Of a DNA stretch of 64,000 bases, positions 16,331-59,921 are shown piece after piece. Source of the stretch: Clostridia bacterium (GTDB lineage: Bacteria; Bacillota_A; Clostridia; UBA1212; UBA1255); NCBI GenBank assembly GCA_017522515.1, contig JAFWZH010000103.1, positions 1 to 64,000 on the forward strand. The letters run 5' to 3'. The notes beneath the pieces were generated by a model, which was given only the letters and a program-made list of their open reading frames with translations, made no database searches and was not told the DNA's origin. Position 1 is the stretch's first letter. Each line of letters begins with the position of its first letter. Made by a program: the position numbers and the translations under genes.

Positions 16331-17260
16331 TTAACTTGGTTTTGCTACCGGTAATGTTTTGTCACTGTTATTTCGAACAACCAATCCGTTAGATTCTTTA
16401 GGTATTCTTACGATAAATTCTATATATTCACCCCTGTCAAATTGTGCAGCTTTCGCTTCTACTCCTGAACGTTTTAAAATTGATATTGTTTCTTTTATGG
16501 TATTTACAAAAATCTTGATGTCTCTGACTACAAATTTAACACTGCCCTTTTGACCTGAAAGATGTTTTTGCACAGGAAGCATATACCCTTTTTCTAACAT
16601 TTCTTCATTGTATTTTTCCAGCATTTTCTCTACTATATCTTCGGCTTCTTTAACGCTGCAATGTTTTTCACTTATTATCTTCAAAGCCTTAAGTTGCAAC
16701 TGTTCATCAGGCATTCTTAAAAGAGCTCTTGCATGTCTTTCTGTTAACTTATTGTCACAAAGAATCTTTTTTACCATAGGAGGTAATTTAAGTAGTCTCA
16801 CTTTATTTGCAATAGATGATTGACTTTTGCCCACTTTTTTTGCCAATTCCTCCTGAGTCATTCCGTGGTCGATTAAAAGACAGTAATATCCTTCTGCCTC
16901 CTCCATAAAATTAAGATTTTCTCTTTGTAAATTCTCAATTAATGCCAATACAGCAGAATCATTATCTCCGGCACTGTACACTATAGCCGGAACACTCGTA
17001 AGACCTGCTATTTTTGCAGCTCTTAATCGTCTTTCACCGGCAATTAATTCGTATGATTGTTCACCTCTTAGCGGCCTGACAGTAATAGGTTGCAATATTC
17101 CGTATTCTTTAATTGAATTTGCCAAATCATATAAGGCACTTCTGGAAAATTCCTTTCTTGGCTGATATGGATTTGCCTTTATTTTATTCGTTGGTATTTC
17201 TGTAATGTAATCTCGCGGTGTCTCGTTTACCAAATCCTCATGTTTAAGTACACAATTCAT
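16331..17260 (-). CDS. noc: nucleoid occlusion protein Noc (ParB family)
   Basis: 309 aa ParB-fold CTPase clamp that binds specific sites and in Bacillus blocks division over the chromosome. Visible: ParB N-terminal domain with GERRLRA (C-motif) near 78, helix-turn-helix GKSQSSIANKVRLLKLP near 145, TERHARALLRMP near 175, and a C-terminal segment ending in EYIEFIVRIPK that resembles Noc rather than Spo0J. The position next to rsmG is the classical noc locus, and a perfect Noc target occurs in recF. The N terminus (MNCVLKHEDL) lacks the amphipathic membrane helix of B. subtilis Noc. Strong SD AGGAGG. Confidence 0.88.
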   Translation of the reverse strand: MNCVLKHEDLVNETPRDYITEIPTNKIKANPYQPRKEFSRSALYDLANSIKEYGILQPITVRPLRGEQSYELIAGERRLRAAKIAGLTSVPAIVYSAGDNDSAVLALIENLQRENLNFMEEAEGYYCLLIDHGMTQEELAKKVGKSQSSIANKVRLLKLPPMVKKILCDNKLTERHARALLRMPDEQLQLKALKIISEKHCSVKEAEDIVEKMLEKYNEEMLEKGYMLPVQKHLSGQKGSVKFVVRDIKIFVNTIKETISILKRSGVEAKAAQFDRGEYIEFIVRIPKESNGLVVRNNSDKTLPVAKPS

Positions 17261-22878: not shown

Positions 22879-23088
22879 TCATTTTACAGGATCATATCCG
22901 CCTTTACAAAACGGATTACATCTTAGTATCCTCCACAACGCCAAAAAGAAACCTTTAAATGCTCCATACTTTTGTATAGCTTCCAATGCATACTGCGAAC
23001 ATGTTGGATAAAATCTGCAACATGGCTTCTTCATTGGAGAAATATTTTTTTGATAAAATTTTATTAAAAATAAAAAAAGTTTTTTCAA
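22879..23088 (-). CDS. yidD: membrane protein insertion efficiency factor YidD
   Basis: 69 aa. Conserved core [16 protein letters not shown] and [16 protein letters not shown], with the family's Cys residues. Starts at a TTG that overlaps the rnpA stop (TTGA), which gives the usual length of about 70 aa; a longer frame reaching back into rnpA is less likely. It is a small membrane-peripheral helper of YidC-dependent insertion. Confidence 0.92.
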
Positions 23089-23453
23089 ATTAACATCCCC
23101 AATGCAGAAGATAGCCATCTCATTTCCTTTTCAACATCATGATATGAAGGAACGGAAACAGCTTTTAACTTTTTGTTAGGAGAATCAGACTTTCTTTCAG
23201 ATGCTCTGGCCATAAAAATTATATCATAGCCTTTCTTCACCTGATTACGGGAAAGACGATAGGCTTCTCTGATAAGTCGTTTCATTCTGTTTCTTTGAAC
23301 ACTATTACCGAATCTCTTGCCTGTCGTTATCCCGATTCTGTTAAATTCCTTTTTATTGGGCATAACATACATGACTATAAAACGTCCTGCTTTAAATCGC
23401 CCTTTTTTGTATACTGTCCTAAATTCATTATTTTTTTTGAGGGTAAATTTCAT
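23085..23453 (-). CDS. rnpA: ribonuclease P protein component
   Basis: 122 aa basic protein that with the RNA subunit matures tRNA 5' ends. Signature [19 protein letters not shown] (the RNR motif) near residue 50; [11 protein letters not shown] follows. It lies 22 bp after rpmH, as in nearly all bacteria, and overlaps yidD by 4 bp. Confidence 0.96.
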
Positions 23454-23881: not shown

Positions 23882-24022
23882 ATTACAGCACAAAAAAAAG
23901 TATACTGCTTTTTAGGTGATTTTTTCTGCTTTTCGATTATTTCTTAAGCGGCTTACATAGGATGACTTTTAAAATTTACAAAAGCTTTGACAGTAGTACG
24001 GATAAAATCTTGGAGGAACCCT

Positions 24023-25381
24023 ATGGAAAGGCTAAACTATACAATTGATGATATAAAGAATAGTTGGTTAAAATGCAAAGAAGATCTTAAATCTGTCATA
24101 TCTCCTTTACATTACGAATGTTATATAGTTGCTTTAGAGCTTGTTGATGTAGTAGGAGATACTGTACATTTTGTTTCTCCATACGAATTTTGCGTAGAGT
24201 TTATAGAAAATAAATATTATAATGAAATAAAAAATGCCTTAATTAAAGAGACAAATCAACAATTTTCACTTGCTTTTCATGTTGTGGGTAAATATACACC
24301 TGTAAAAAATAATAATTCTATACAAAGTGAAATTGTAAGTAACAATCCAGATAAAAATACATATAAATCAAATCTTAATCCTAAATATACATTTGATTCA
24401 TTTATAATAGGAAACAGCAATAGAATGGCTTATGCAGCAGCAGTAGCTATTTCCGATTCACCTGGAACAGCTTATAATCCTTTGTTTATATATGGTAATT
24501 CAGGTCTCGGTAAAACTCATCTCATGCATGCTATAGGAAATCAAATTTTAAAGAATGATCCTACAAAGAAAGTTTTATATGTAACATCTGAAGTATTTAC
24601 AACAGAATTTATAGACGCAATTGCAAATAAAAAGAATAATGAATTCCGTAACAAATACAGAAAAATTGATGTTCTTCTGATAGATGATATTCAATTTATT
24701 TCGCGCATGGAAAGAACTCAAGAAGAATTCTTTTACACTTTCAGTTCATTATATGAAGATAAAAAGCAAATTGTTATTTCATGTGATAGCCCTTTAAATA
24801 AAATTGAAATACTTGAAGATAGACTTCGCACAAGATTCGGATGGGGATTAATTGTTGATATTCAAGTACCTGATTTTGAAACAAAAGTTGCTATTCTAAA
24901 TAGAAAAGCTTCAGAAAATTCAATTGATGTTGATAATGAAATCCTTGACTATATCGCAAATTATACAAGTGATAATATAAGAGAGCTTGAAGGAGTAATT
25001 AATCATCTTTCTATTTCTCTTATGCAAGGAAAAGAAATAACTCTTAATTTAGCCAAAGAAGCTTTAAAACATTATCAAAAAAATGATATTAGAGAAATTG
25101 ACGCAAGTATTATTATAGATAGTGTTTCAAGATACTTTAATTTAAGCGTAGAAGATATTCTTTCTAAAAAGAGAACAAAAGAATTAGTTTTTCCAAGACA
25201 GATATCAATGTTTTTATGCAGAAATCTTACTAATATGTCATATCCTGATATCGGAAAAGCTTTTAACGGTAGAGATCATACAACAGTTATGTATGCTTGT
25301 GAACAAATTTCAAAGCAAGTAAATACTAATCAAGAGCTTAAACATATTATGGAAGAGCTTAAGAAAAATATTATAATTTAA
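24023..25381 (+). CDS. dnaA: chromosomal replication initiator DnaA
   Basis: 452 aa AAA+ initiator. Domain I (1-80), short domain II, domain III with NPLFIYGNSGLGKTHLMHA (Walker A) near 150 and LLIDDIQFI (Walker B), the arginine-finger region, and domain IV with the DNA-binding signature GRDHTTVMYACEQI near 420. The ATG at 24023 has SD GGAGG (24012-24016); an upstream in-frame TTG at 23987 has none. It is followed directly by oriC. Confidence 0.98.
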   Translation: MERLNYTIDDIKNSWLKCKEDLKSVISPLHYECYIVALELVDVVGDTVHFVSPYEFCVEFIENKYYNEIKNALIKETNQQFSLAFHVVGKYTPVKNNNSIQSEIVSNNPDKNTYKSNLNPKYTFDSFIIGNSNRMAYAAAVAISDSPGTAYNPLFIYGNSGLGKTHLMHAIGNQILKNDPTKKVLYVTSEVFTTEFIDAIANKKNNEFRNKYRKIDVLLIDDIQFISRMERTQEEFFYTFSSLYEDKKQIVISCDSPLNKIEILEDRLRTRFGWGLIVDIQVPDFETKVAILNRKASENSIDVDNEILDYIANYTSDNIRELEGVINHLSISLMQGKEITLNLAKEALKHYQKNDIREIDASIIIDSVSRYFNLSVEDILSKKRTKELVFPRQISMFLCRNLTNMSYPDIGKAFNGRDHTTVMYACEQISKQVNTNQELKHIMEELKKNIII

Positions 25382-25383
25382 AT

Positions 25384-25608
25384 TTTTCCACAAAAAACGG
25401 TGGATATGTGGAAAAATCCCTGTGGACAAAATGTGGAAAAAATTTTAAAATGAATAGGCTGTGGAAACTGTGGATAATTTTTCATAGTTATCAACAAGGT
25501 TATCAACAAGCATTTTTAGCTATATATAGCCAAAAAATTAAATTTTCCACAATATCCACAGACACTACTACTACTACTACTAAGAATATTATAATATAAT
25601 ATAAAAAG
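25384..25608. other. oriC: DnaA-box cluster, DnaA-trio and AT-rich unwinding element
   Basis: Between dnaA and dnaN. DnaA-box matches: TTTTCCACA (25384, 25543, +), TGTGGAAAA (25407, 25432), TGTGGACAA (25421), TGTGGAAAC (25460), perfect TGTGGATAA (25469-25477), TTATCAACA (25488-25496 and 25500-25508), ATATCCACA (25552-25560). Then come six CTA triplets (25565-25582) and an A/T-only stretch to 25608. The order box, trio, AT-rich matches the unwinding system described for Bacillus. The dnaN promoter (TATAAT at 25590 or 25595) is probably inside the AT-rich part. Confidence 0.95.
25565..25582. repeat. DnaA-trio array (six CTA units)
   Basis: Six uninterrupted CTA trinucleotides start 4 nt after the last DnaA box (ATATCCACA, 25552-25560). 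Complementary-strand GAT triplets are the DnaA-trio elements that guide DnaA filament growth on single-stranded DNA. Confidence 0.85.
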
Positions 25609-25633
25609 CGATATACAACCGGAGGTTATTTTT

Positions 25634-30237: not shown

Positions 30238-30999
30238 ATGGCTAAAGTTATTGCTGTGGCAAACCAAAAAGGTGGTGTAGGAAAAACTACGACATCTATT
30301 AACTTAAGTTCATGTACTGCATATAGGGGAAAACGCGTTCTTTTAATAGATTTAGACCCACAAGGAAATGCTACCACAGGTTTAGGTGTTGACAAAAGAG
30401 AAATGCAATCATCTATATATGATGCTATTATTAATGAAGTGCCTATTAAAGAGGTAAGCATAAATACTATGCAAGAAACGCTTAATCTTTGCCCGTCGAG
30501 TATAAGTCTTGCTGGAGCAGAGATAGAGTTAGTGAGCTTACTTTCAAGAGAAAACAGATTAAAATATGCAATTTCAGAAGTTCAGGACGATTATGATTAT
30601 ATTTTTATAGATTGTCCTCCTTCTTTAGGATTGTTGACACTTAATGCATTAACAGCTGCAGATACTGTTTTAGTTCCTATACAATGTGAATATTTTGCAT
30701 TGGAGGGATTGTCTCAATTAATGGATACAGTAAGGCTTGTACAGAAACATTTAAATAGATCCCTTAAGGTAGAAGGTGTTGTTTTGACGATGTTTGATGC
30801 GAGAACAAATTTATCTATTGAAGTTGCAGAAGAAGTAAGAAAGCACTTTACTAATAAGGTTTATCAAACCCTAATACCAAGAAATGTAAGATTAAGTGAA
30901 GCTCCGAGCTATGGGCTTCCTATTATAATGTACGACAAAAACTCTAAAGGAGCAGAAGCATACTTACAGCTGGCAGATGAGTTAATAAATAATCGATAA
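30238..30999 (+). CDS. parA: chromosome partitioning ATPase ParA/Soj
   Basis: 253 aa deviant-Walker ATPase: ANQKGGVGKTTTSINLS (residues 7-23) with the signature Lys, DLDPQGNATTGLG near 40, FIDCPPSLGLLT near 122. It acts with ParB at parS for origin segregation and, in Bacillus, controls DnaA. SD AGAAGGAG precedes the ATG; parB follows after 31 bp. Confidence 0.96.
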   Translation: MAKVIAVANQKGGVGKTTTSINLSSCTAYRGKRVLLIDLDPQGNATTGLGVDKREMQSSIYDAIINEVPIKEVSINTMQETLNLCPSSISLAGAEIELVSLLSRENRLKYAISEVQDDYDYIFIDCPPSLGLLTLNALTAADTVLVPIQCEYFALEGLSQLMDTVRLVQKHLNRSLKVEGVVLTMFDARTNLSIEVAEEVRKHFTNKVYQTLIPRNVRLSEAPSYGLPIIMYDKNSKGAEAYLQLADELINNR

Positions 31000-31030: not shown

Positions 31031-31900
31031 ATGGCTATAAAAAGATCTGCACTTGGTAAAGGATTAGGTGCTTTAATTACCGAAAATACATCTTTAGACA
31101 CAAAAAATAGTGTTATAGAAGTTGATATTAATAAAATAGAGCCTGGTATAGGGCAACCTCGTAAAAATTTTGATAAAGAAAAAATAGAAGCACTTGCTCA
31201 ATCCATTAAAGAACATGGTATTATACAACCACTGATTGTAACAAAGGAAAAAGATACGTATTATATTGTTGCCGGTGAAAGAAGATGGAGAGCTGCAAGA
31301 GTTGCAGGAATAAAAAAAGTACCTGTTATTGAAAGAACTGCTACTACCAAGGAAGTAATGGAACTTGCCTTAATAGAGAATATTCAAAGAGAAGATTTGA
31401 ATCCTGTAGAAGAAGCAGAAGCGTATCAAAAATTAATGGATGAATTTGAAATGACACAAGACCAAGTTGCAGGTATTGTTGGTAAAAGCAGACCGGCAGT
31501 AGCAAATACACTAAGGTTACTGAATCTTTCAAAAGAAGTAAGAAATTTTTTAATTAGTGGTGAACTTACTGTTGGTCAAGCAAGACCATTATTAGCTATT
31601 GAAAAAATAAGCGAACAAAAAACAGCTGCAGATTATATTATTAGGGAAGGTTTAAACGCGAGACAAGTTGAGCAATATATTAAAAAATTTGTTTCTAAGA
31701 AAGAAAATAGTAGAAAAGAAAATATTACTGAAAAAGAAGTTATTAACAAACAAGAAATAAAATTTGTTCAGGATAAACTAAGATCGTCCTTAGGAACAAA
31801 GGTTATTTTAAGTGATAATAATGGAAAAGGAAAAATAACAATAGAATATTATTCTGCCGATGAAAGAGAACGAATTATTGAATTTTTAACAAGCAAATAA
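31031..31900 (+). CDS. parB: chromosome partitioning protein ParB/Spo0J
   Basis: 289 aa CTP-dependent DNA clamp. N-terminal KRSALGKGLGALI (ParA-stimulating peptide), GERRWRAARVAG near 80, helix-turn-helix GIVGKSRPAVANTLRLLNL near 150, TVGQARPLLAIE near 180, and a C-terminal dimer domain. The target parS sites lie directly upstream of parA. Confidence 0.96.
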   Translation: MAIKRSALGKGLGALITENTSLDTKNSVIEVDINKIEPGIGQPRKNFDKEKIEALAQSIKEHGIIQPLIVTKEKDTYYIVAGERRWRAARVAGIKKVPVIERTATTKEVMELALIENIQREDLNPVEEAEAYQKLMDEFEMTQDQVAGIVGKSRPAVANTLRLLNLSKEVRNFLISGELTVGQARPLLAIEKISEQKTAADYIIREGLNARQVEQYIKKFVSKKENSRKENITEKEVINKQEIKFVQDKLRSSLGTKVILSDNNGKGKITIEYYSADERERIIEFLTSK

Positions 31901-58483: not shown

Positions 58484-59014
58484 TTGGAACAAGTACTGTG
58501 TTTTTTTGTATCAATATTTATGTTTTCTTCTTTATTTGCTACATCTGCAGAAGCTTTGGCAGAAAAGCAAAAAAGCAGAATCATTAAACAAAACATAAAT
58601 TCTGCGGGGAGAGATATTCTTAACTATATAAAAGATGACAATGGGCAAATAATTATTGATGAAGAAGCATATTTGGAAAGTATTAAAAGTATGAATAATA
58701 CCGGAAAAATATTAGGAGGTATATTTTATTATAACAATTGTATTTCGGTTATTAAAAAAGAAAAAAATAAATACATTCTTAAAAGAGTTAATGCAGGACA
58801 GATGAATGAAAGAAATAGACTAAATACCATAAATAGTTTCTTGGCCTTTTTGTGTAACGAAAAGGAGCAAAAATTTTTTATAAACATATCTGTGGAAAAC
58901 GAAGAAGATTACTTAACGGAGGAATTTTTTAATAATTTAGAACAAAATACAGTTTTTATAGTAGCAGAAACAAAAAAAAATATAATTGTATCGGGTTTTG
59001 AATTGAAAATATAA
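58484..59014 (+). CDS. membrane-anchored minor subunit, unknown
   Basis: 176 aa. Start TTG 58484 with a strong SD GGAGGG (58472-58477). Hydrophobic N-terminal segment ending near SAEALA could be a signal peptide or anchor; the rest is mixed helix and strand. Family not recognised. Last gene of the Tad-like operon; directly followed by the DnaA-box cluster. Confidence 0.55.
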   Translation: MEQVLCFFVSIFMFSSLFATSAEALAEKQKSRIIKQNINSAGRDILNYIKDDNGQIIIDEEAYLESIKSMNNTGKILGGIFYYNNCISVIKKEKNKYILKRVNAGQMNERNRLNTINSFLAFLCNEKEQKFFINISVENEEDYLTEEFFNNLEQNTVFIVAETKKNIIVSGFELKI

Positions 59015-59017
59015 TAG

Positions 59018-59206
59018 TTTTCCACAGATAATTGTGGAAAACCCTGTGTAAAGCTGTGGAAAGTGGTGGAAAACAAATATACGGGTTAATAAACAAGCAA
59101 AACCTAAAAAAGTATCATTTATAGCCAAAAAATAAAAATAATCCACAGAAATCCTGTGGATAACTCGCTGGATTTTGTGGATAACTACACAAAAAACTGT
59201 GGAATA
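59018..59206. other. second DnaA-box cluster with oriC-like segment
   Basis: Seven DnaA-box-like 9-mers in 190 bp: TTTTCCACA (59018), TGTGGAAAA (59033), TGTGGAAAG (59055), TAATCCACA (59139), perfect TGTGGATAA at 59155-59163 and 59176-59184, TGTGGAATA (59198). The 14-mer TATAGCCAAAAAAT (59120-59133) also occurs at oriC (25525-25538), and in both places GGTTA-(N)-AACAAGCA precedes it. There is no CTA-trio or long A/T-only element. Perfect two-mismatch-free inverted pairs occur at 59018-59041 and 59141-59161. Confidence 0.85.
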
Positions 59207-59243: not shown

Positions 59244-59921
59244 TTACATTAAATAGAAAAGTATACTGAAAAAATGAAGTATGCTACCGGCTAAAACAAA
59301 AAGATGAAAAATCGAATGTATATATCGAATTTTCTTTTTTTTGCCTAATCCGTACAAAATTGCACCAATGGTATATGATATACCACCTATGAGTAAGAAA
59401 ATAAGACAAATAGGGTTAAAGTATTTTATCATAGGACCTGTAACAGTTGCTACGCACCAACCCATGGCAAGATAGCAAATCATTGAAAAAACCTTAAATT
59501 TTTTCATATTAACAGCATTTAAAGTAATTCCTAAAGCAGCAGCGCCCCAAATTACACCGAAAATTGTCCAAGCAAGACCGGGACGGTAAGGGCGCAGACC
59601 GCTCAACATAAAAGGTGTATATGTGCCGGCAATCAGAAAAAATATTGAGCAATGGTCAATTACGCGAAAGACCTTTTTTGCTGTGTTATGACGAAGACCA
59701 TGATAAATACTGGACATTGTATAAAGAATTATCATTGAACCGCCGTAAATGGCACCGCTCACTACACCCCAAACATTATGGTGTATGGCGGCCATAATTA
59801 CACAAAGTGTTACTGCAGCAATAGCAAGGGCTCCACCTACAATATGTGAAACCATATTAAAAATTTCCTCTCCTTTTGTATAAAGAGGGGTTTCCGTTGT
59901 ATTAATTTTGTTTTGTGTCAT
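59244..59921 (-). CDS. hemolysin III/YqfA (TrhA) family membrane protein
   Basis: 225 aa with seven transmembrane helices. PAQR/hemolysin III signatures: SSIYHGLRH near 70, DHCSIFFLIAGTYTPF near 88, and HSIFHLFVLAGSILHF near 202, which hold the metal-binding Ser/Asp/His set. In E. coli the homologue affects membrane fluidity. It is the only minus-strand gene right of oriC in the window. Own promoter at 59975-60003. Confidence 0.88.
   Translation of the reverse strand: MTQNKINTTETPLYTKGEEIFNMVSHIVGGALAIAAVTLCVIMAAIHHNVWGVVSGAIYGGSMIILYTMSSIYHGLRHNTAKKVFRVIDHCSIFFLIAGTYTPFMLSGLRPYRPGLAWTIFGVIWGAAALGITLNAVNMKKFKVFSMICYLAMGWCVATVTGPMIKYFNPICLIFLLIGGISYTIGAILYGLGKKKKIRYIHSIFHLFVLAGSILHFFSILFYLM

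What the first reader, a model, noticed from the sequence alone, without database searches (positions are those of the whole stretch)
59018..59206. Second oriC-like DnaA-box cluster 33.5 kb from the origin
The intergenic region after the Tad-like operon holds seven DnaA-box-like 9-mers, two of them perfect TGTGGATAA. It also shares the 14-mer TATAGCCAAAAAAT with oriC (25525-25538), and in both places a similar GGTTA...AACAAGCA segment lies just upstream in the same orientation. This looks like a paralogous copy of part of oriC. It lacks the CTA-trio and long A/T element, so a DnaA-titrating or regulatory locus (as for datA or the Bacillus DnaA-box clusters) is more likely than a second origin.
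Basis: partly seen in the sequence, partly recalled or inferred. Interest (0 to 1): 0.8.

Follow-up and report, generated by a model that had tools for sequence, protein, structure and literature searches.

The report
Conserved DnaA-box cluster near oriC
About 34 kb from where chromosome copying starts, this uncultured gut Clostridia bacterium and its close relatives keep a small, precisely spaced group of binding sites for the initiator protein DnaA, most likely a control site that keeps copying from starting too early.

Summary
Window 59018-59206 has 5 DnaA boxes within one mismatch of TTATCCACA (2 perfect) and 8 within two; 100 random 64-kb sequences never exceeded 3 per 200 bp. It is not a second origin: no DnaA-trio, no GC-skew switch; oriC lies between dnaA and dnaN, 33.6 kb away.

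The cluster is conserved in five relatives with fixed geometry: a +/-/- triad at 0/16/37 bp in 6 of 6, box columns 82% identical against 49% outside. It persists where the HlyIII gene on one side is missing (G005) and where the Tad-like operon on the other is remodelled (G003). In these five relatives all 15 tandem box pairs found genome-wide lie at oriC, at this cluster or behind nadC. Likeness to oriC beyond the boxes is real in three of five genomes tested, weak in one, absent in one.

Best reading: an oriC-proximal DnaA-binding regulatory locus, like the Bacillus DnaA-box clusters, but with selected spacing that suggests an ordered DnaA complex. Binding and function are inferred. E. coli DARS spacing (14/12) is not met. 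A stem at the core may also end HlyIII transcription. New variant of a known kind; interest moderate.

The parts
59018..59206 (.). DnaA-box cluster, between the 3' ends of two convergent genes
   Evidence: conserved in G001-G005
59018..59063 (.). Left triad: boxes 59018(+), 59033(-), 59055(-), offsets 0/15/37, same offsets as the dnaA-proximal end of oriC
   Evidence: 4 of 6 clusters, 9 of 10 oriCs
59065..59073 (-). Weak box GGTGGAAAA (2 mismatches)
59084..59099 (+). GGTTAATAAACAAGCA, like GGTTATCAACAAGCA of oriC (25498-25512)
59120..59133 (+). TATAGCCAAAAAAT, also at 25525-25538 in oriC; TAGC-N-AAAA form present in both oriC and cluster of window, G001, G002, G004
59139..59184 (.). Core triad: boxes 59139(+), 59155(-, perfect), 59176(-, perfect), offsets 0/16/37
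   Evidence: 6 of 6 clusters, 0 of 10 oriCs, also G006 and G008 clusters
59198..59206 (-). Box TGTGGAATA (2 mismatches), identical in 6 of 6
25382..25633 (+). oriC: 9 boxes (<=1 mismatch), (CTA)6 trio at 25565, A/T run, between dnaA and dnaN
   Evidence: GC skew switch
23987..25381 (+). dnaA (ORF start as listed, TTG)
   Evidence: Bac_DnaA 231.5 bits
25634..26749 (+). dnaN
58484..59014 (+). Last ORF of the Tad-like operon, ending just before the cluster
   Evidence: operon name rests on weak TadA/VirB11 and CpaB matches below cut-off
59244..59921 (-). HlyIII-family gene, convergent on the cluster
   Evidence: PF03006 133.3 bits

Best explanation
It is an oriC-proximal DnaA-box cluster: a non-coding locus on which several DnaA molecules assemble in a fixed arrangement and so reduce the DnaA available to oriC. 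Lying 33.6 kb from oriC, it is doubled soon after initiation, and the two copies would then hold back a second, untimely initiation. Shown by sequence: the boxes, their conservation with fixed spacing, no unwinding element, position near oriC (window and G002). Inferred: that DnaA binds it, that binding is cooperative and ordered, and that the effect on initiation is negative. Its left end is built like an oriC half; where oriC has its trio and A/T-rich element it has three further boxes instead.
For: Box density far above chance. Present in G001-G005; box columns 82% identical (72 columns) against 49% outside (129 columns) over six genomes; core offsets 0/16/37 in 6 of 6. Kept where HlyIII is missing (G005) and where much of the Tad-like operon gives no or weak matches (G003). 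Whole-genome scans of G001-G005: tandem pairs TTWTCCACA-N0-30-TTWTCCACA give 15 matches, all at oriC, this cluster or behind nadC; inverted pairs lie at 7 places, all oriC or this cluster. In window, G001, G002, G003 and G004 HlyIII converges on the cluster, so promoter control is unlikely there. dnaA-to-cluster distance 33.6 kb in the window, 33.5 kb in G002. In B. subtilis, removing six clusters outside oriC causes early initiation, partly relieved by re-inserting one (PMC5295017, passages; PMC13220808, passages). No YabA over the family cut-off in 31 of 31 order-level genomes and no second DnaA-like ATPase in G001-G004 at E <= 0.001, so two known regulators are not seen.
Against: No binding or phenotype data. 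Single 9-mers TTWTCCACA are not enriched over the reversed-pattern control in G001 (71 against 107) or G002 (100 against 94), though they are in G003-G005. PMC5295017 also states that the B. [quoted passage not shown] Seven of 31 genomes have weak YabA-like hits under 23 bits. ParA, ParB and two parS sites lie near oriC, so another control is available. A T-rich tail after the core stem on the HlyIII strand allows a terminator reading.
Confidence: 0.65

Rival explanations
1. An ordered DnaA switch (DARS- or datA-like): the fixed box arrangement changes the nucleotide state of DnaA rather than merely holding DnaA.
For: Spacing is conserved, not just box number. Orientation of the core (+,-,-) is the same as in the E. 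coli DARS core (box I opposite to II and III: PMC5742627, passages); the left end in the window reads + 15 - 12 - if the poor box TGTGTAAAG is counted.
Against: Spacing measured in MG1655 is 14/12 at both DARS1 and DARS2, here 16/21 in the core; the +27 box is seen in the window, G001 and G002 only; oriC itself has +,-,- triads, so orientation alone is not telling. PMC13220808 (passage) says DARS and datA are absent in B. subtilis.
Confidence: 0.12
2. A displaced half of a bipartite origin (oriC1) that still works together with the dnaA-dnaN half by DNA looping.
For: Clostridial origins studied are bipartite (PMC7561715, passages). The window, G001, G002, G004, G006, G008 have 0 and G003, G005, G009 have 1 box in 700 bp upstream of dnaA, while six distant relatives have 5-7. 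G069 has the cluster's looser 22-mer core about 0.2 kb upstream of its dnaA. Left triad as in oriC.
Against: Many other genomes without a known remote cluster also have 0-1 boxes there (for example G017, G020, G044, G075), so the link is weak. Looping over 33 kb is without precedent known to me (recall).
Confidence: 0.08
3. Transcription terminators: the inverted box pairs are hairpins that end the convergent HlyIII and Tad-like transcripts, and look like DnaA boxes by coincidence.
For: Two terminator-like sites on the HlyIII strand against a shuffled mean of 0.2; strand folds better than shuffles (z -3.76). After the core stem on that strand 5 or more T of 8 in window, G001, G003, G004. The left stem covaries: TTTTCCACA/TGTGGAAAA or TTATCCACA/TGTGGATAA.
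Against: The tail is 2 T in G002, which has HlyIII, and 4 in G005, which has none; the left stem has 5 T only in the window; on the Tad strand no tail has more than 3 T. Does not explain the conserved third and fourth boxes at +37 and +59, the consensus box letters, the same triad behind a 5S rRNA gene in G006 and G008, or that box pairs gather at oriC and here only. Dual use is possible.
Confidence: 0.08
4. A second or alternative replication origin.
For: Many boxes around an A/T-rich stretch, partial likeness to oriC.
Against: No [CT]TA trio in 6 of 6 clusters, while a trio pattern is found in 8 of 10 oriCs (not G006, G008, patterns not identical). GC skew stays positive over 58-60 kb.
Confidence: 0.02

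Closest known systems
Bacillus subtilis DnaA-box clusters outside oriC (DBCs; Okumura et al. 2012, paper not held, known here through PMC5295017 and PMC13220808 passages)
   Same: Several DnaA boxes outside oriC; for the oriC-proximal ones also closeness to oriC.
   Different: Here one dense cluster per genome in the genus (plus a small nadC group in three of five), with box spacing fixed between species; sequence homology to any Bacillus cluster was not tested.
E. coli datA
   Same: Non-coding DnaA-box cluster nearer to oriC than to the terminus; would limit initiation.
   Different: datA's essential boxes share one direction and need an IHF site (PMC5742627, passages); here directions are mixed, though 59155, 59176, 59198 are co-directional. 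IHF sites were not sought.
E. coli DARS1/DARS2 core
   Same: One box opposed to two others.
   Different: Spacing 14/12 against 16/21 here.
The organism's own oriC
   Same: Left triad 0/15/37, TAGC-N-AAAA motif and GGTTA...AACAAGCA in the same order.
   Different: No trio, no long A/T element; right half replaced by the 0/16/37 triad and a further box, an arrangement seen in 0 of 10 oriCs.

Membership tests
Non-oriC DnaA-box cluster (Bacillus DBC type) | Several DnaA boxes close together outside oriC, more than chance | tested here: met
Non-oriC DnaA-box cluster (Bacillus DBC type) | Kept by selection in relatives | tested here: met
   window and G001-G005
Non-oriC DnaA-box cluster (Bacillus DBC type) | Near oriC | tested here: met
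   33.6 kb in window, 33.5 kb in G002; G001, G003, G004, G005 have dnaA and cluster on different contigs
Non-oriC DnaA-box cluster (Bacillus DBC type) | Binds DnaA; loss advances initiation | not testable with these tools
   needs binding assay and mutant
E. coli DARS | Core boxes I-III with fixed spacing (+ 14 - 12 -) | tested here: not met
   MG1655 sequences; here + 16 - 21 -
E. coli DARS | Releases ADP from DnaA | not testable with these tools
   biochemical
E. coli datA | Essential boxes in one direction | tested here: inconclusive
   mixed directions, but three co-directional boxes at 21 and 22 bp
E. coli datA | IHF site between boxes | not tested
   no search made
Replication origin | DnaA-trio next to a box, with unwinding element | tested here: not met
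Replication origin | GC-skew switch | tested here: not met
Intrinsic terminator | Stem followed by a T-run, conserved with the gene it serves | tested here: inconclusive
   HlyIII strand, core stem: 6, 6, 2, 5, 6, 4 T of 8 in window, G001-G005; left stem 5, 3, 4, 1, 4, 4
Bipartite-origin half (oriC1) | Lies just upstream of dnaA | tested here: not met
   cluster is 33.6 kb away; 0 boxes in 700 bp upstream of dnaA in the window

The most novel reading that the evidence does not exclude
In this order of uncultured gut Clostridia, where YabA and the upstream half of the origin are not recognisable in the window's closest relatives, initiation timing is set by one dense DnaA complex of fixed geometry outside oriC: an ordered switch or remote origin half rather than a passive sponge. 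The locus has moved between places (behind a Tad-like operon, behind a 5S rRNA gene, perhaps inside mutL) while its box geometry was kept by selection.
Probability: 0.15. Interest if true: 0.8.

Novelty: new variant of a known kind. Interest (0 to 1): 0.48.

Why it matters
The 2026 review PMC13220808 (passage) states that B. subtilis lacks datA and DARS and that it is unknown whether it balances the DnaA nucleotide states. A cluster whose spacing, and not only box number, is kept between species argues for an ordered DnaA complex outside oriC in Firmicutes, and gives a 190-bp DNA with which to test sponge against switch. The different places of dense clusters among relatives are a natural test of whether position near oriC matters.

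Tried and rejected
Second origin: rejected. Promoter regulation: unlikely, since in the window and in four of the five relatives (G001-G004) HlyIII converges on the cluster, and 4 promoter-like sites are within shuffles (mean 3.0, sd 1.9); in G005 the next gene (HAD) lies downstream in the same direction as the Tad-like operon, so there it is not excluded. RNA family: none at the cluster at gathering scores. Phage source: no match of 271 bp in the phage collection. DARS membership: spacing not met. Exact 14-mer as proof of paralogy: weak, see above. TAGCCAAAAN{3,12}TCCACA as an order-wide motif: 4 matches in 3 of 31 genomes, control 1; two are in G001 (this cluster and the nadC group), one in G004's cluster, one elsewhere in G007. 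MAFFT alignment of oriC and cluster as a pair was too gappy to use. Single-box counts: the list was cut, so it was read for G005 and part of G002 only. mutL clusters in G007 and G010 as sure DnaA sites: 8 boxes against codon-shuffled means 2.9 and 3.8 (1 and 8 of 1000 shuffles reach it), but 7 of 8 lie in one reading frame, so protein repeats may explain them. The gene beside the triad in G014 got no Pfam family. That nobody has described such loci in this lineage rests only on the searches in the open library (listings seen; Okumura 2012 not held). Of the papers used I saw passages only (PMC5295017, PMC7561715, PMC13220808, PMC4447404, PMC5742627).

Full report
What is there. The window holds a Firmicute-type origin region: rnpA (23085-23453), dnaA, an intergenic oriC with (CTA)6 and an A/T run, dnaN, recF-like and gyrB ORFs, then ParA and ParB genes. 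GC skew is negative up to 24 kb, positive from 26 kb to the end of the window. At 59018-59206, between the last ORF of a Tad-like operon (58484-59014, +) and a convergent HlyIII gene (59244-59921, -), lie 5 boxes within one mismatch of TTATCCACA and 8 within two. In 100 Markov sequences of 64 kb no 200-bp stretch held more than 3 boxes within one mismatch.

Conservation. The window's own genome is not held. One scan of named genomes with the HlyIII protein gave 80 loci. In all 80 I mapped boxes; the 400 bp behind the gene were looked at in the first 40. L001, L002 and L003 (92, 84, 75% protein identity) have 5 boxes in 200 bp there; in the other 77 loci no 200 bp hold more than 3. The core TTATCCACAGGWTTTYTGTGGA is found once in each of those genomes, G001-G003, with up to 2 mismatches allowed. 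Its looser form TTATCCACANNNTTTNTGTGGA is in 6 of 146 relatives of G001: G001-G005 and G069; in G069 it lies about 0.2 kb upstream of dnaA, not at a remote place. In G002 dnaA and cluster share a contig, 33.5 kb apart, in the window's gene order. In G001, G003, G004 and G005 they are on different contigs.

Geometry. In the alignment of six clusters (window, G001-G005) box columns are 82% identical in pairs (72 columns), the rest 49% (129 columns). The core triad 59139(+)/59155(-)/59176(-), offsets 0/16/37, is in 6 of 6 (up to 2 mismatches per box), and TGTGGAATA follows in 6 of 6. The left triad 0/15/37 is in 4 of 6; in G003 its third box is one base nearer and in G002 it stands at +27. oriC has 0/15/37 at its dnaA-proximal end in 9 of 10 genomes (not G010) and 0/16/37 in none. 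With boxes placed at random the triad 0/16/37 arises in 0.05% (5 boxes) to 0.9% (13 boxes) of simulated clusters.

Genome-wide. In G001-G005 the tandem-pair pattern has 15 matches: at oriC, at this cluster and behind nadC, nowhere else (nadC in G001, G002, G005 by Pfam). The inverted-pair pattern marks 7 places, all oriC or this cluster. Over 31 order-level genomes 18 have tandem pairs, 81 matches in all; control 2, both in G007. Start-to-start spacing is 12 bp in 20, 21 in 12, 22 in 9, 37 in 9 and 13 in 5 of the 81, where an even spread over 31 spacings would give about 2.6; orthologous loci and the oriCs are included, so these are not independent. Single 9-mers TTWTCCACA are not above the reversed control in G001 and G002: it is the grouping that stands out.

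Independence from neighbours. G005 lacks HlyIII, and its cluster stands between the Tad-like operon and the next gene in the same direction. In G003 five of the nine Tad-region proteins tested gave no match and two only about 25% identity. The boxes and offsets persist in both.

Farther relatives. The exact triad pattern WTCCACA-N7-TGTGGAWAA-N12-TGTGGA is in 9 of 31 genomes, control 0 (G002 is missed through mismatches): four at this place, G006 and G008 in clusters of 13 and 10 boxes just behind a 5S rRNA gene near a contig end, and G012, G014, G016 in small groups beside an ORF without Pfam match in G014. G007 and G010 have 8 boxes inside mutL. Whether these are one locus that moved or new ones is open.

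oriC likeness. See the first-reader field: clear in the window and its nearest relatives, faint in G005, absent in G003 (G004 was not tested within its own genome). Against controls with boxes moved at random, the local scores were reached 4, 11, 7, 180 and 21 times of 300 in window, G001, G002, G003, G005. Descent from oriC is likely for part of the cluster but not proven.

Upstream half of the origin. Of 38 genomes looked at (37 with a usable dnaA ORF; G022 and G067 had under 100 bp upstream), 6 have 5-7 boxes within 700 bp upstream of dnaA; the window and G001-G006, G008, G009 have 0 or 1, as do many without a known remote cluster. A displaced oriC1 is possible but weakly supported.

Mechanism. 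The Bacillus clusters are the nearest model: their joint removal brings early initiation, partly relieved by one re-inserted cluster, though the same review calls their role not significant (PMC5295017, passages). No YabA over the cut-off was found in 31 of 31 genomes (7 with weak hits; control positive in B. subtilis and L. lactis), nor a second DnaA-like ATPase in G001-G004. ParA-type control remains possible. I favour titration by an ordered DnaA assembly. The E. coli DARS core was measured at + 14 - 12 -, so membership fails, while the one-against-two orientation is alike. A terminator role of the core stem for HlyIII is not excluded.

Verdict. Observation confirmed; regulatory DnaA locus supported by comparison, oriC paralogy in part; function untested.

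Noticed in passing
L144:3171-5117 (G010), L139:9380-11440 (G007): Eight DnaA-box-like 9-mers lie inside mutL, in the linker between its two domains (Pfam MutL_C and DNA_mis_repair in G010); codon shuffles reach 8 boxes in 8 of 1000 (G010) and 1 of 1000 (G007), but 7 of 8 lie in one frame.
   Followed up: partly
L138:9955-10168 (G006), L141:10048-10208 (G008): Clusters of 13 and 10 boxes directly behind a 5S rRNA gene, with the same 0/16/37 triad as the window's cluster.
   Followed up: partly
L109, L099, L098 around 1500-1640: A smaller group of DnaA boxes follows nadC in G001, G002 and G005, with the first two boxes 13 bp apart; in G001 a TAGCCAAAAA motif precedes it.
   Followed up: partly
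window 30165 and 30203: Two perfect parS-like 16-mers (consensus recalled) just before a ParA and a ParB gene (30238-30999, 31031-31900); a second ParB/Noc-like gene at 16331-17260 scores 314.6 against a Noc cut-off of 315.
   Followed up: partly
dnaA upstream regions: Boxes within 700 bp upstream of dnaA range from 0 to 7 among relatives, so the upstream half of the bipartite origin may have been lost more than once.
   Followed up: partly
L159-L162 (G014, G011, G016, G012): Upstream of dnaA these four share a pair of perfect boxes facing each other 25 bp apart.
   Followed up: no
order-level genomes: Tandem DnaA-box pairs prefer spacings of 12, 21-22 and 37 bp.
   Followed up: partly
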